The notes below the pieces were generated by a model. It did not search any database. It worked only from the letters and a program-made list of their open reading frames with translations, and was not told the origin of the DNA. A DNA stretch of 64,000 nucleotides from Clostridia bacterium (GTDB lineage Bacteria > Bacillota > Clostridia > Oscillospirales > Acutalibacteraceae): positions 124,001 through 188,000 of the forward strand of contig JAFQBE010000013.1 of the NCBI GenBank assembly GCA_017416765.1. The letters are read 5' to 3'. Made by a program: the position numbers and the translations under genes. Of this stretch, positions 53,811-64,000 are shown in pieces. Each line of letters opens with the position of its first letter. Position 1 is the stretch's first letter.

Positions 53811-54053
53811 TTATTCTCTGCCAAACAAAAAATCGAGCGAAACATTTAACACTTCTGAAATTGCTTCAAGTTCAATATCCGTTACTGCTCTTTTTCCGTT
53901 TTCAATGCGTGATATAGAACCTCTGCAAGTATAAACAGCCAATAGCTCCATCTTTTCTGAAAGCTGTTTCTGACTCATGTTTGCTTTGATTCGTGCTTCT
54001 TTAATTCTTTCACCGGTAATATTTAATTGTTCGTTATCAATAATTCTTTTCAT
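53811..54053 (-). CDS. Small XRE-family transcriptional regulator
   Basis: An 80-aa Cro/CI-type repressor consisting only of the helix-turn-helix domain: ERIKEARIKANMSQKQLSEK, then ISRIENGKRAVTDIELEAIS and NVSLDFLFGRE. The ATG at 54053 has GGTGA upstream; the GTG at 54065 is an alternative that overlaps that site. It is transcribed away from a two-gene unit (54154-54632). Two palindromic sites in the shared 100-bp region are likely its operators. Confidence 0.9.
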   Translation of the reverse strand: MKRIIDNEQLNITGERIKEARIKANMSQKQLSEKMELLAVYTCRGSISRIENGKRAVTDIELEAISEVLNVSLDFLFGRE

Positions 54054-54066
54054 AAAATTCACCACA

Positions 54067-54132
54067 TGTCTTGATTTAGGACAAAATAAGTGTATACTGT
54101 GTTTTATGAAACTATGTCCTATTGATAGGACA
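54067..54132. promoter_or_regulatory. Paired palindromic operators between the XRE gene and the 54154 unit
   Basis: TGTCCTATTGATAGGACA (54115-54132) is a perfect 18-bp palindrome, and TGTCTTGATTTAGGACA (54067-54083) is a diverged copy. They flank the plus promoter: the first overlaps its -35 and the second lies just after its predicted start. Binding by the adjacent small XRE protein is inferred from position and symmetry. Confidence 0.65.
54071..54098 (+). promoter_or_regulatory. Promoter of the 54154 unit
   Basis: TTGATT (54071-54076), 16-bp spacer, TATACT (54093-54098). The -35 lies within the first palindromic site. Confidence 0.55.
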
Positions 54133-54153
54133 AGACACTGTGAGGTGACAAAA

Positions 54154-54258
54154 ATGGTTAAAACTTATGTCGTTAGTATTTTCTTAGAGAAAAGCCGTGA
54201 TAACACCTTAAACACAACTTTGGCATCGGACTTGTTCCCGATATATATTATCTCATGA
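54154..54258 (+). CDS. 34-aa small ORF coupled to the SLOG-like gene
   Basis: A 34-codon frame (MVKTYVVSIFLEKSRDNTLN... ending IYIIS) with a GAGGTG ribosome site seven bases before the ATG and a stop overlapping the next start (ATGA, 54255-54258). It has no recognised homologue. It may be a leader peptide for translational coupling, a small functional protein, or the remnant of the N-terminus of the following gene. The strong RBS and exact overlap favour translation. Confidence 0.55.
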   Translation: MVKTYVVSIFLEKSRDNTLNTTLASDLFPIYIIS

Positions 54259-54632
54259 GCAAGCACAAAAATATTCTTTTTTTAGTACCCTATGATTATC
54301 CTTCTTCAGAATCCGTTATGAGAGCCGTACACAGCATAGAAAAAATGTATGGTGATGTTCTTACGCAATGTTGGGCAATTTGTAATTGTTCTGTAAAGAC
54401 TTTTTATGAAAAAACAAATTTTTTTGATAAATGCGTTTTGATAAACGGTCTTGAAAAAAATCCGCTTCAAATTGATGAATTAACAAGTAATAAAAGAATG
54501 GTTGATATGTCTGATTTTTCTATTTTTTATAATGAAAATCCATACAGCACAGTATATCAAACAATGAAATATGCTGAAAAAGCAGGAAAAAAACATATTA
54601 TCTTTAAACTCCCAAAAGATAAAATCAAGTAA
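54255..54632 (+). CDS. Putative SLOG-superfamily nucleotide-binding-like protein
   Basis: A 125-aa protein, AT-rich, without membrane segments. It starts with a beta strand (KNILFLVPYDYPSSESVM) and contains the segment SDFSIFYNENPYSTVYQTMK followed by YAEKAGKKHIIFKLPKD; this D-x-x-I-x-Y...T-x-x-T/A-Y-A...K-x-I pattern resembles the last part of SLOG/DUF1273 Rossmann-like proteins. The N-terminal part is shorter than in typical members. It is divergent from a small XRE repressor. The function is unknown; assignment is tentative. Confidence 0.5.
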   Translation: MSKHKNILFLVPYDYPSSESVMRAVHSIEKMYGDVLTQCWAICNCSVKTFYEKTNFFDKCVLINGLEKNPLQIDELTSNKRMVDMSDFSIFYNENPYSTVYQTMKYAEKAGKKHIIFKLPKDKIK

Positions 54633-60443: not shown

Positions 60444-60497
60444 AATATGATTTTTTTTAGGACAAAAACTTTATAATTAGCTAAAATCTCAAATCCG

Positions 60498-60526
60498 TTG
60501 ACTTTCATAAACCCAAGTGCTATTAT
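60498..60526 (+). promoter_or_regulatory. Promoter of the FokI-type restriction-modification operon
   Basis: TTGACT (60498-60503), 17-bp spacer, TATTAT (60521-60526), about 38 bp before the GTG start of the methyltransferase. Confidence 0.65.
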
Positions 60527-60563
60527 AATTACAAGGATGTTACGGGATGTGAGGTGCTAATTT

Positions 60564-62513
60564 GTGAGATTTATTGGTAGCAAAACAAGCTTACTTGAAA
60601 ATATTGATATGGTTATATCGGAGAACACTACCGGAAATGAAAATATTTTTTGTGATATTTTTTCAGGCACCGGTGCGGTTGCGCGCTATTTTAAACCAAG
60701 GTATGAGGTGCATTCAAACGACGCCTTGCATTTTTCATATGTAATTCAAAAAGCAACAGTTGAAAACAATATCAAACCTTCTTTTTCAAAATTGCGAAAC
60801 ATCGGAATATTTGACCCATTTAAATTTTTAGAAGAAACTCAAATACAAATTTTAGATTACAATGATGATAATTATTTCATAACGAAAAATTATACTCCAC
60901 ACGATAATTGTGAAAGAATGTATGTGTCAAATAAGAATGCCGCAAGAATTGATTTTATACGAAATACAATCGAAGCATGGAAAAAAGAGAATTTACTTAC
61001 CGAATTAGAATATTATTATTTACTTGCCGGATTAATTGAGGGAGTTCCATCCGTTTCAAACATCACAGGTACATATGGTGCTTATTTAAAGCACTGGGAC
61101 AAGCGCACTTTTAAAGATTTAGAAATGGCTCGGTTAGATGTCATTAACAATAATAGAAATAATAAAAGCTATAACACGGATGCCAATAAACTGATTGAGG
61201 AAATAAGTGGAGATATTTTATATCTAGACCCACCGTATAACTCTCGTCAATATGCTCCTAATTATCATTTTCTTGAAACAATTTCAAAATACGATTATCC
61301 CGAAATTCGCGGAGTAACAGGAATGAGACAGTATGATGACTTAAAATCGCCATTCTGTATAAAAAATGAAGTTTATGATGCATTTGAAGACTTAATAAGT
61401 AAAGCAAATTTCAGTAATATTGTAATGAGTTACAGCACAGATGGTTTAATGACTTCAGATAAAATCGAAAAAACATTAAAAAAATACGGGATAGAAGAAA
61501 CCTATAAAATGTATTCAATTCCATATAGACAATATATGAGTAAAAAAACAAAGCAAACGGAATGTCTATATGAATATATTTTTTTCATCAAAAAAAATAT
61601 ACCTATAAAATCAACCTTTGATTTTATAGGTATGCCAAGCGATATAAAGCCTATTATTTCCGATACAAAAAAATATATAAAGAGTCCCTTAAACTACATA
61701 GGTGGAAAATATAAATTGCTTCCTCAAATTTTACCACACTTTCCCAACTACATTGGCACTTTTGTTGATTTATTTTCAGGCGGCTGTAATGTTGCTATAA
61801 ATGTAAGTGCAAACAGAATTATTTGTAATGACATAAACAAAAAAATCACTGAACTATTTGAAGTATTTAAAAACACAGAATTATCTGAAATATTATATCA
61901 AATAAAAAGTCGTATAACCGAATATGAACTTTCAAAAGAAAATGAAGAAGGTTTTAAAAGATTTAGAGATTTTTACAATTTAACACAAAATCCGATTGAT
62001 TTATATACTTTAGCTTGTTATTCCTTTAATTATCAATTTAGATTTAATAACGATTTAGAGTATAATAATCCTTTTGGCAGAAACAGAAGTCAATTTTCGG
62101 ACAACATGGAACATAACTTGATTTCATTTGTTTCAAAGCTCCAAAAACTAAATGTTGAGTTTTCAAGTAAAGATTTCACACAAATATCGCTGGATAATCT
62201 TACTCCTGAAGATTTCATTTATTGCGATCCACCTTATTTTATAACAACAGGAACATATAATGACGGAAATCGAGGTTTTAAGGATTGGAAAGCAGAACAG
62301 GAATATGCTTTATATGATTATTTAGACAGAGCGGATAAAAAAGGCATCAAATTTGCCTTGTCAAATGTTGTTCAGCATAAAGGGAAAGTCAATGAGATAC
62401 TGCTTGATTGGGCAAAAAAATACACGGTTATTGATTTGAACTATAATTATTCAAACTCAAGTTATAATACGAAGAAAGGAGAAAGCAGAGAAGTTTTAAT
62501 AATAAACTATTGA
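60564..62513 (+). CDS. M.FokI-like adenine DNA methyltransferase with two fused catalytic domains
   Basis: A 649-aa protein, close to the 647 aa of M.FokI. Two D12/Dam-class domains are in tandem: domain 1 begins MRFIGSKTSLLENIDMVI, with SAM motif FCDIFSGTGAVARYF and catalytic DPPYNSRQYAP (Asp222-Tyr225); domain 2 begins about residue 370 with SPLNYIGGKYKLLPQIL, FVDLFSGGCNVAIN and DPPYFITTGTY (Asp555-Tyr558). In M.FokI each domain methylates adenine on one strand of the asymmetric GGATG/CATCC site. The GTG start has GAGGTG seven bases before it. The gene is notably AT-rich compared with its left neighbours, which suggests transfer. Confidence 0.93.
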   Translation: MRFIGSKTSLLENIDMVISENTTGNENIFCDIFSGTGAVARYFKPRYEVHSNDALHFSYVIQKATVENNIKPSFSKLRNIGIFDPFKFLEETQIQILDYNDDNYFITKNYTPHDNCERMYVSNKNAARIDFIRNTIEAWKKENLLTELEYYYLLAGLIEGVPSVSNITGTYGAYLKHWDKRTFKDLEMARLDVINNNRNNKSYNTDANKLIEEISGDILYLDPPYNSRQYAPNYHFLETISKYDYPEIRGVTGMRQYDDLKSPFCIKNEVYDAFEDLISKANFSNIVMSYSTDGLMTSDKIEKTLKKYGIEETYKMYSIPYRQYMSKKTKQTECLYEYIFFIKKNIPIKSTFDFIGMPSDIKPIISDTKKYIKSPLNYIGGKYKLLPQILPHFPNYIGTFVDLFSGGCNVAINVSANRIICNDINKKITELFEVFKNTELSEILYQIKSRITEYELSKENEEGFKRFRDFYNLTQNPIDLYTLACYSFNYQFRFNNDLEYNNPFGRNRSQFSDNMEHNLISFVSKLQKLNVEFSSKDFTQISLDNLTPEDFIYCDPPYFITTGTYNDGNRGFKDWKAEQEYALYDYLDRADKKGIKFALSNVVQHKGKVNEILLDWAKKYTVIDLNYNYSNSSYNTKKGESREVLIINY

Positions 62514-62526
62514 TGCTGATAAAATT

Positions 62527-64000
62527 ATGATTTCTGTAATTCCGACACATAATAAAAACTTTCGTGCTTTTGGTTGGGTACAAGACCCAAGTAATTTGCG
62601 TAGTCTTTGCGATGTTGTTGCTGTTTTTGACACAAATTCACAAAAGAATAAAGACTTGATAAAAACCATCATTCCAAAACTTGTTGAAGAGCGTGATGGG
62701 CGTGATGATTTTATAAATGCACTGCAGAGCAAACCACTAAAAATCAAATATTGTCAACTTGTAGGCACATCTTTCACTCCAAGAAGCATGTCAAGGTGTA
62801 ACGGTATTATACAAGCAACGGTGAAAGGTCAAGGACGAGATTTTATAGGAGATTGGCCTGCTGATAATTTTGTTCGTTGGGCTCATTGTTTCGGATTTAT
62901 AAAATATGATTATACAGACGATACATTTGAAATAACAAATAAAGGATTAGAGCTTACAAGGGCAAGAGGAACAGACGAAACTCTTTCTGAAAAAGAAAAA
63001 GAATTGCTTATAGATGCCGTTTTAGCATATCCACCGGCTATAAGAATATTAACCCTGCTTTCAGAAACAGAAGACACTCATCTTACTAAATTCGAAATAG
63101 GACAGCAATTAGGTTTTATAGGTGAAGATGGTTTTACAAGCATGCCTCAAAAAATCTTTATTAGGTCTCTATCAAATGCAGACGTAAAAGAACGTAAAAG
63201 TATGAAGGCTGATTGGGAAGGCTCATCGGATAAATATGCTCGAATGATTGCGAGTTGGCTAGAAAAGCTTGGTCTTGTTGAAAAAGCTCCTAAAACGATT
63301 ACAATTTTATGTACCGGAAAAGAATATACAGAAACAATAGGTCAAGCCTATGTCATTACAGCAAAAGGCATTACGGCATTAAGAAAAGCTAATGGTAAAA
63401 GCAAGCATAAAAAAATTTCAAAAAATGTATGTTGGGAAATGTTATCAACTAAAGGTGCAGACAGAGAATATTTACGAACACGCCGTGCATTTATTTTAAA
63501 ATATCTGTCTGAAAACAAAACTATCGTTTCGGTTTTGGAGATTTCAGATTATCTTAAAACTGTTAATCTTAATGTAAGTGAAAATACTATCTTGGACGAT
63601 ATAAAAGGCTTGCAGAATATAGGCATAAATATATTAGACAGAGGTAATAGTTTTTTGTTTGATGATGAAATTAATGACTTCAGTATTCCATTGCCTCAAT
63701 CACTTACAAAGTCTGATTTAGCGGAAACAAAAGAAATAATCAGGGATAAATTATCAAATCTATCACATGAATATTTAGCGCTTATAGACCTTGCTTATGA
63801 TAGTAAGCAAAATCGATTATTTGAAATTAAAACTTTAGACCTACTGACTGAAGAATGCGATTATCAAGGATTGCATCTCGGCGGAAGCCGCAAGCCTGAT
63901 GGTATAATTTATACAAATACCGAAACAAGTAAATATGGTGTCATTATAGATACAAAAGCATATTCAAAAGGTTATAATTTGCCTATTTCGCAAGCCGACG
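62527..64000 (+). CDS. FokI-like type IIS restriction endonuclease (C-terminus cut by the window edge)
   Basis: 491 codons are open to the edge; FokI has about 580 residues. The N-terminal recognition part matches FokI throughout: FGWVQDPSNL, QLVGTS, IIQATVKGQG, FVRWAHCFGFI, YPPAIRILTLL, NWEGSS-type DWEGSSDKYARMIASWLEKL, YLRTRRAFIL. The cleavage domain has LSHEYLALIDLAYDS, HLGGSRKPDG, VIIDTKAYSKGYNLP and ISQAD; the PD-D-TK catalytic residues are Asp458, Asp475 and Lys477, eight positions later than FokI Asp450, Asp467 and Lys469. The dimer helix lies past the edge. It starts 13 bp after the methyltransferase, with a weak RBS. Confidence 0.95.
   Translation, partial: MISVIPTHNKNFRAFGWVQDPSNLRSLCDVVAVFDTNSQKNKDLIKTIIPKLVEERDGRDDFINALQSKPLKIKYCQLVGTSFTPRSMSRCNGIIQATVKGQGRDFIGDWPADNFVRWAHCFGFIKYDYTDDTFEITNKGLELTRARGTDETLSEKEKELLIDAVLAYPPAIRILTLLSETEDTHLTKFEIGQQLGFIGEDGFTSMPQKIFIRSLSNADVKERKSMKADWEGSSDKYARMIASWLEKLGLVEKAPKTITILCTGKEYTETIGQAYVITAKGITALRKANGKSKHKKISKNVCWEMLSTKGADREYLRTRRAFILKYLSENKTIVSVLEISDYLKTVNLNVSENTILDDIKGLQNIGINILDRGNSFLFDDEINDFSIPLPQSLTKSDLAETKEIIRDKLSNLSHEYLALIDLAYDSKQNRLFEIKTLDLLTEECDYQGLHLGGSRKPDGIIYTNTETSKYGVIIDTKAYSKGYNLPISQAD

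What the first reader, a model, noticed from the sequence alone, without database searches (positions are those of the whole stretch)
60564..64000. FokI-type restriction-modification pair with intact catalytic residues in an AT-rich insert
The methyltransferase has two DPPY domains in tandem, as in M.FokI, and the endonuclease is recognisably FokI along its full visible length, including the PD...D-x-K site (Asp458, Asp475, Lys477). Gene order and spacing match the FokI operon. Base composition is visibly more AT-rich than the allose operon beside it, which points to horizontal transfer. The N-terminal recognition region differs from FokI at many residues (for example RSMSRCNGIIQAT against FokI RSEAPCDAIIQAT), so the same or a related target than GGATG is possible.
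Basis: partly seen in the sequence, partly recalled or inferred. Interest (0 to 1): 0.8.

Follow-up and report, generated by a model that had tools for sequence, protein, structure and literature searches.

The report
FokI-type restriction-modification system with self-target promoter
This is a complete, recently acquired bacterial DNA-cutting and DNA-protecting gene pair of the well-known FokI kind, and just in front of its protective gene sit two copies of what is probably the pair's own target sequence, an arrangement conserved in distant relatives that suggests the genes sense their own methylation.

Summary
M (60564-62513, 649 aa, two D12/Dam-type methyltransferase halves) and R (62527 to 64299, 590 aa, intact beyond the window) form a FokI-type Type IIS system. 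R is 46.7% identical to FokI over 473 aligned residues and keeps its catalytic triad. It is a recent insertion: 7 of 10 other same-genus genomes show the empty site, and its GC is 0.31 against 0.44-0.46 in the flanks. As a gene pair it is a new member of a known kind.

The same GGATG-N5-GGATG element precedes M in 17 of 22 FokI-type systems read and in two systems with an unrelated putative REase, while further flanks have diverged (0.29-0.35 identity). It occurs once in the host genome. I read it as a conserved self-target operator by which M senses its own methylation. Promoter-methylation control is known for CfrBI, LlaDII and AhdI; nine searches found no report for FokI-type systems. That GGATG is the target is inferred; regulation, its sign and its mechanism are untested.

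The parts
60488..64000 (+). Inserted cassette; runs on to about window 64305 (L004:2488-6305), about 3.8 kb, borders approximate
   Evidence: Empty sites in 7 of 10 other same-genus genomes; flank alignment places the left border just after the host kinase promoter remnant; GC 0.314 vs 0.457/0.441
60498..60526 (+). Predicted sigma-70-type promoter of the cassette, TTGACT-17-TATTAT with TG before the -10
   Evidence: TTGAC/TATAAT-like boxes at the same place in several relatives. Consensus match only: the scan found 25 such sites where shuffles gave 21; no transcription data
60535..60549 (+). Tandem self-target element GGATG-N5-GGATG (sites 60535-60539 and 60545-60549)
   Evidence: Only match in the whole 2.77 Mb host genome; present upstream of M in 18 non-redundant systems; chance expectation 0.03 in the window
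60564..62513 (+). M: fused two-domain adenine-N6 methyltransferase, M.FokI type, 649 aa
62527..64000 (+). R: FokI-type Type IIS endonuclease, 590 aa, complete gene ends at window 64299

Best explanation
A complete Type IIS restriction-modification cassette of the FokI kind. Inferred from homology: the two halves of M each methylate adenine on one strand of GGATG/CATCC, and R binds unmethylated GGATG with its N-terminal domains and, after dimerising through its PD-(D/E)xK domain, cuts 9 and 13 bases downstream. Shown by sequence: the cassette is an insertion carrying its own promoter-like sequence, and two directly repeated GGATG sites, one helical turn apart, lie between the predicted -10 box and the M start and are kept in related systems whose flanks have diverged. 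Inferred: this pair is a methylation-sensing operator. Until M has methylated the four adenines in the initially transcribed region the promoter fires freely; methylation lowers transcription of M (and here of R, which follows it), so enzyme levels settle, with a possible pulse after replication when the sites are hemimethylated. Estimated probabilities: FokI-type R-M 0.97; target GGATG 0.9; element functional at DNA level as autoregulatory site 0.65; sign 'methylation lowers transcription' 0.45.
For: FokI-type proteins. Insertion. Element: 17 of 22 FokI-type systems with an M in the locus carry it (L059 and L060 near-identical but counted apart), 17 of 18 if only fused M genes are counted. 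In 18 non-redundant carriers (16 FokI-type, two with another putative REase) both GGATG are 18/18, spacing 10 bp 18/18, while site-to-start distance varies 20-29; mean pairwise identity is 1.00 in the element, 0.43 in its spacer, 0.29 at -40 to -16, 0.41 at -15 to -1, 0.35 downstream. It follows M: it stands at M in tandem M-R, R-M, convergent and divergent layouts, and the separately placed R genes of L033, L034, L059 and L061 have no GGATG or CATCC in the 150 bp before them (4 of 4; L058 had only 29 bp to look at). It also stands at M in two systems whose other gene is a putative REase without FokI similarity (L047, L066). Seven M.FokI-like MTases with other or no recognised partners (L050-L054, L056, L093) lack it anywhere in the stretch held. 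IMG/VR scan: 5 of 5 contigs with 5-base spacing before an M-type start are M.FokI-type, 0 of 43 with 6-30-base spacing. Markov-simulated 60-bp upstream regions: 3 of 54000 carry it. No RNA structure in the 12 of 18 leaders folded. Precedent: promoter methylation regulates CfrBI, LlaDII and AhdI (review section).
Against: No expression or methylation data. Five of the 22 FokI-type systems lack the element: L009 (fused M, degenerate GAATG-N5-AAATG), L057, L164 and L165 (split M) and distant L169. Two more, not counted in the 22, also lack it: G1041, with M 1.2 Mb from R, and L171, whose 26-29% R-like matches lie in two separate pieces. L048 and L049, probably also GGATG-specific, lack it (domain order swapped). 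In L066 the element lies between divergent genes, so there it is also upstream of the putative REase. M and R share one transcript here, so the element cannot by itself delay R. T follows site 2 in 18 of 18, and site 2 reads ATG-stop in 11 of 18, which leaves room for a translational role. The predicted -10 boxes are best consensus matches, some weak. N13 of FokI (N13Y is binding-deficient) is Asp here. In six other genomes the motif has 1-11 matches each, most of them not at M, so it is not unique everywhere.
Confidence: 0.75

Rival explanations
1. The element is an operator bound by the enzymes themselves rather than read through methylation: M (or R) sits cooperatively on the two unmethylated sites, one helical turn apart, and blocks RNA polymerase at the start site.
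For: Exact 10-bp phasing 18 of 18 and position 5-16 nt after the predicted -10 box; the site is the enzyme's probable own recognition sequence.
Against: Many other GGATG sites would compete for the protein (60 in this 64-kb window; about 2,600 per genome if extrapolated), so occupancy seems unlikely without strong cooperativity; repression of an unmethylated operator would hinder establishment in a naive host.
Confidence: 0.2
2. The conserved stretch works in the mRNA: GGATGT supplies upstream start codons (short or start-stop leader ORFs) or part of a ribosome-binding region that tunes M translation, and its match to the recognition site is secondary.
For: ATG followed directly by a stop at site 2 in 11 of 18, T after site 2 in 18 of 18; in several Clostridia the first ATG opens a leader frame in or overlapping the M frame (sequences).
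Against: Leader frames are not conserved (immediate stops in some Lactobacillales plasmids, other frames elsewhere; sequences); distance to the M start varies 20-29 while spacing is fixed; no RNA structure in 12 of 18 leaders folded; both copies being exactly FokI's 5-bp target would be a coincidence; MTases with other partners lack it.
Confidence: 0.12
3. An ordinary FokI-type R-M cassette; the GGATG pair is shared ancestry or chance without function.
For: The proteins alone are fully explained as FokI-type; some related systems do without the element.
Against: Further flanks have diverged to 0.29-0.35 pairwise identity while the element is 1.00; 3 of 54000 simulated upstreams carry it.
Confidence: 0.1
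4. The system recognises a sequence other than GGATG (changed specificity).
For: N13 to Asp and N217 to Ala at positions near FokI's DNA contacts (contact roles recalled).
Against: The same replacements occur in relatives that also carry the GGATG pair at M; Q12, R79, W105, E220, D224, K225, R228 are kept in the window protein.
Confidence: 0.08

Closest known systems
FokI restriction-modification system (Type IIS, GGATG 9/13)
   Same: All four FokI Pfam domains, catalytic triad, 46.7% identity over 473 aligned residues; one fused M with two adenine-MTase halves (FokI facts from passages of PMC4081073).
   Different: N13 and N217 replaced; whether fokIM itself has the tandem GGATG pair could not be checked.
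Csp12AI of Clostridium sp. 12(A) (FokI-like; M1/M2 split, R 1.2 Mb away)
   Same: FokI-like R and M.FokI-like MTases in a clostridium (PMC4752239, passages and section 11 read).
   Different: Here M is fused and adjacent to R and has the element.
Pin25611FI of Prevotella intermedia (GGATG, M2-M1-R, R about 475 aa from its coordinates)
   Same: GGATG/CATCC m6A target, called FokI-like (passages of PMC5608340).
   Different: R length resembles the 465-471-aa putative REases of L047-L049 and L066, and its layout that of L048 and L049; four of these five REases have no Pfam match, the fifth was not scanned. Not sequence-compared with Pin25611FI.
Promoter-methylation control in CfrBI, LlaDII and AhdI
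   Same: Promoter methylation is reported to act on MTase transcription; for CfrBI at its own site in the promoter overlap (PMC12707154, passages and section 10 read).
   Different: There shown as a Type IIP mechanism; here the target is asymmetric, in two phased direct copies, conserved across related systems. Regulation not shown here.
MhoVII of Mycoplasma hominis (fused M1-M2, GATG/CATC)
   Same: Fused two-activity MTase with a related target (passages of PMC12898733).
   Different: Different REase and a 4-bp target.

Membership tests
FokI-type Type IIS restriction endonuclease | Recognition subdomains D1, D2, D3 followed by the FokI cleavage domain | tested here: met
   Pfam PF02981, PF02980, PF16902, PF09254 all above cut-off on the 491 residues in the window
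FokI-type Type IIS restriction endonuclease | PD...DxK catalytic residues (FokI D450, D467, K469) | tested here: met
   D458, D475, K477; invariant in 11 of 11 aligned sequences
FokI-type Type IIS restriction endonuclease | Recognises GGATG and cuts 9/13 downstream | not testable with these tools
   Supported indirectly by kept residues and the GGATG pair at M
M.FokI-type fused methyltransferase | One polypeptide with two adenine-MTase halves, each with its own motif IV | tested here: met
   Two D12 matches, DPPY at 222-225 and 555-558
M.FokI-type fused methyltransferase | m6A on both strands of GGATG/CATCC | not testable with these tools
   No methylation data held
R-M system regulated by methylation of its own promoter | Own recognition site in the promoter region of M | tested here: met
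   GGATG pair 5-16 nt after the best predicted -10 box in 18 systems; conditional on the target being GGATG
R-M system regulated by methylation of its own promoter | Methylation of that site changes transcription | not testable with these tools
   Needs a reporter experiment
C-protein-controlled R-M system | Small HTH regulator gene next to M or R | tested here: not met
   No ORF of 60 aa or more lies between the insertion border and M, and M is followed directly by R; relative L057 does have one, HTH_26, overlapping M
Horizontally acquired insertion | Empty site in close relatives | tested here: met
   7 of 10 other same-genus genomes with adjacent flanks; site not seen in the other 3

The most novel reading that the evidence does not exclude
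FokI-type GGATG systems share an epigenetic autoregulator that I found in no paper: two copies of their own asymmetric target, phased by one helical turn, at the transcription start of M, which read the local methylation state and set M transcription. It travels with the MTase across REase families, gene orders and two phyla, and is mostly absent from related systems with split M, one of which has an HTH regulator instead.
Probability: 0.55. Interest if true: 0.65.

Novelty: new variant of a known kind. Interest (0 to 1): 0.5.

Why it matters
FokI is among the most used nucleases in biotechnology, yet in nine searches of the held literature I found nothing on how FokI-type operons control their own expression. 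A conserved self-target pair at the M start gives a simple, testable answer, gives sequence-only evidence for the specificity of uncharacterised FokI-type systems (read the operator), and would extend promoter-methylation control, which a review calls apparently rarely used, to a Type IIS family.

Tried and rejected
RNA structure in the leader: 0 pairs in RNAalifold on 12 of the 18 leaders, rejected. Conserved leader peptide: frames differ between relatives, rejected as the general explanation. GGATG avoidance in the host: 60 in the window against 88 expected from shuffles, but under a higher-order Markov model GGATG ranks only 33rd most depleted of 512, so no claim. Tandem repeats of another target upstream of five MTases with other partners: nothing convincing. 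Phage or plasmid carriage: no R match in the phage collection; R relatives in 13 plasmid records, 5 of them over at least 80% of the query, all under 60% identity; the first IMG/VR scan with the single protein found none, the alignment scan found 5. No integrase was seen beside the cassette in the ORF lists read; no dedicated repeat search of the borders was run.

Literature searches (nine searches; listings with abstract starts seen) gave no paper on self-target sites in a FokI-type promoter. 'FokI' occurs 0 times in the main texts of the two regulation reviews. Also looked at in passages only, without use for the argument: PMC10201449, PMC4687069. Most subscription papers, including the original FokI operon papers, are not held, so this is not proof of absence.
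Full report
1. The observation. I followed R into the host contig (window = G000:C29:124001-188000): it ends at L004:6299, that is window 64299, 590 aa, no stop or frameshift. M carries two D12-type MTase matches, the second half belonging to the Dam family, with DPPY motifs at 222-225 and 555-558. The part of R in the window matches all four FokI Pfam domains and the FokI crystal-structure chains at E about 1e-124; 221 of 473 aligned residues are identical. D458, D475 and K477 correspond to FokI D450, D467 and K469 and are invariant in 11 of 11 sequences aligned, the window's included. That alignment holds 11 of the 13 R genes in hand at the time; L010 and L035, whose R is interrupted, were left out, and R genes fetched later were not added.

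2. How it came. GC of the cassette is 0.314 against 0.457 and 0.441 beside it. R was not found in any of the 58 other genomes, 10 of them of the same genus (some incomplete). In 7 of those 10 the sugar ABC-transporter gene and the cytidylate-kinase-like gene are neighbours with a short intergenic gap; in G002, G007 and G009 only short pieces of the query matched and the site was not seen. Alignment of that gap places the insertion after what looks like a degenerate remnant of the host kinase promoter and before the kinase ribosome-binding site, so the kinase gene may now be read from the R-M transcript; no terminator-like site was found on the + strand between R and the kinase. The cassette brings its own promoter-like sequence, TTGACT-17-TATTAT.

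3. The element. Between the predicted -10 box and the M start are two direct copies of GGATG with 5 bases between them (60535-60549). GGATG is FokI's target. The pattern GGATG-N5-GGATG has one match in the host genome, this one (reversed control 0), and 0.03 expected in the window. In six other genomes it has 1, 2, 3, 3, 7 and 11 matches, of which one in G871 and one in G1068 are at M, so elsewhere it is not unique. In the loci in hand every match lies upstream of an M.FokI-type start.

I then read the sequence upstream of M in relatives; 23 loci, element in 13; of 43 loci fetched from viral contigs, 12 rows showed an M start or an R, being 8 distinct contigs; element in 5 (two of them near-identical); the other 31 loci hold only a Dam-like part; 12 regions, M start in 6, element in 2, one of them (L166) a copy of L005. 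Counting systems with a recognisable FokI-type R and an M in the locus: 17 of 22 have it (L059 and L060 near-identical, counted apart). Without it: L009, L057, L164, L165, L169. Left out of the 22: L171, whose R-like matches (26-29%) are in two separate pieces and which lacks the element; G1041, where M is 1.2 Mb from R and lacks it; L046 and L170, R fragments without M in the stretch. Among the 22, fused M genes have it in 17 of 18. In addition L047 (Psychrobacter plasmid) and L066 (a proviral contig, split M) have it although their second gene is a 471- or 465-aa protein without detectable FokI similarity (L047: no Pfam match, and not among the R matches; L066: no R match, not scanned with Pfam). 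With those of L048 and L049 these proteins are 52-87% identical to one another and carry a PD...EGK motif, so I take them as another GGATG REase family, perhaps that of Prevotella Pin25611FI (passages; not compared by sequence).

Eighteen non-redundant carriers were aligned on the first site (L060 left out as near-identical to L059). Both GGATG are 18 of 18, spacing 10 bp 18 of 18, a T follows site 2 in 18 of 18 and site 1 in 13 of 18. The distance from site 1 to the M start varies from 20 to 29. Mean pairwise identity is 1.00 in the ten element bases, 0.43 in the spacer, 0.29 at -40 to -16, 0.41 at -15 to -1, 0.35 downstream. The set spans Clostridia, Lactobacillales plasmids, IMG/VR contigs and a gammaproteobacterial plasmid; one carrier (L011) has a 54% GC cassette. 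The best predicted -10 boxes, some of them weak, end 5 to 16 nt before site 1, which would put the sites in the initially transcribed region. Simulated 60-bp upstream regions carried the element in 3 of 54000. In viral contigs, the element with 5-base spacing before an M-type start gave 5 contigs, all M.FokI-type; spacings of 6-30 gave 43 stretches, 0 of 43 M-like by tblastn.

4. What it does. The element goes with M: it is at M whether the genes are in tandem in either order, convergent or divergent, and the R genes of L033, L034, L059 and L061 have no GGATG or CATCC in the 150 bp before them (4 of 4; L058 had only 29 bp). In divergent L066 it lies between the two genes and so before both. 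It goes with GGATG-type MTases: seven M.FokI-like MTases with other or no recognised partners (HNH, AlwI-family, MAG4270-family and others) lack it. It is missing in L057, where an HTH_26 gene overlaps a split M, and in other systems with split or rearranged M (L164, L165, L048, L049, L068, G1041); the first half of M in L165's genome shows two stops within the match. L066 is an exception, split yet with the element, and L009 the converse, fused and without. The leader has no RNA structure in 12 of 18 folded and no conserved leader frame, although site 2 reads ATG-stop in 11 of 18. The simplest reading is a methylation-sensing operator for M. The nearest precedent is promoter methylation in CfrBI, LlaDII and AhdI (review section 10): in CfrBI it blocks polymerase at the MTase promoter, in the other two only the MTase gene is affected. 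By that precedent I favour negative feedback, but the sign is inference. If R cuts 9/13 downstream, cuts directed by the two sites would fall at 60548/60552 (inside and just past site 2) and 60558/60562 (just before the M start); I do not build on this.

5. Specificity. Of FokI positions that I recall as DNA contacts, Q12, R79, W105, E220, K225 and R228 are kept in the window protein; over the 11 aligned sequences Q12, W105, K225 and R228 are kept in 11, E220 in 10 and R79 in 9. N13 is Asp in 8 of 11, the window's included, and N217 is Ala here. FokI N13Y does not bind, so Asp there is notable; but relatives with Asp carry the GGATG pair too. I conclude GGATG, probability about 0.9.

6. Known or new. 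As genes: a new member of the FokI family. FokI-like systems in Clostridia are already published (Csp12AI, section read). As a regulatory arrangement: a new variant of a known kind, not found in nine literature searches of an open-licence library (listed in Tried and rejected). The FokI and StsI operons themselves could not be checked.

7. Frequency. Full-length FokI-type R besides the window's own turned up in 2 of 394 genomes of the order (with 3 more weak or partial matches) and in 3 of 391 of the class (one of them with a stop inside, and 6 more weak or partial matches); in 398 genomes of the phylum only the host itself matched the FokI_D1 family. These systems are rare and patchy in this sample.

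Noticed in passing
window 53811-54632: A second AT-rich island (GC about 0.30) with a Cro/CI-type HTH gene (53811-54065, minus) and an ORF of 125 aa without Pfam match (54255-54632).
   Followed up: partly
L004:6326-6931 (window 64326-64931, outside the window): The host cytidylate-kinase-like gene seems to have been cut off from its own promoter by the insertion (possible remnant AGGACA-17-TAAAAT left of the cassette) and may be co-transcribed with M and R.
   Followed up: partly
L009:6041-6055: The only fused-M FokI-type system without the element shows GAATG-N5-AAATG at the same place; decayed operator or a changed specificity is unresolved.
   Followed up: no
L010:8001-9762, L035:4001-5730 and L167 (R on the minus strand): R is interrupted (matches in several frames in L010 and L035, one stop in the genome of L167) while M gives one unbroken match and the GGATG pair upstream of it is present.
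   Followed up: no
   Followed up: partly
L046 and seven other staphylococcal plasmid records: A short protein matching only the FokI recognition half (residues 13-308 of the query), next to an IS6-type transposase in L046; probably a remnant.
   Followed up: no
L047, L048, L049, L066: A family of 465-471-aa proteins with a PD...EGK motif beside M.FokI-type MTases; no Pfam or NCBIfam match in the four of five members scanned; possibly an uncatalogued GGATG endonuclease family.
   Followed up: partly
L172-L175: Open frames of about 520-530 aa that match only the FokI cleavage domain, with no M.FokI-type MTase found in the stretches fetched; other recognition halves.
   Followed up: no
L055 (Streptococcus phage Javan105): Prophage with M.FokI-like MTase halves (48.5% identity) as two genes, no FokI-type R match in the phage collection, and no GGATG pair.
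   Followed up: no
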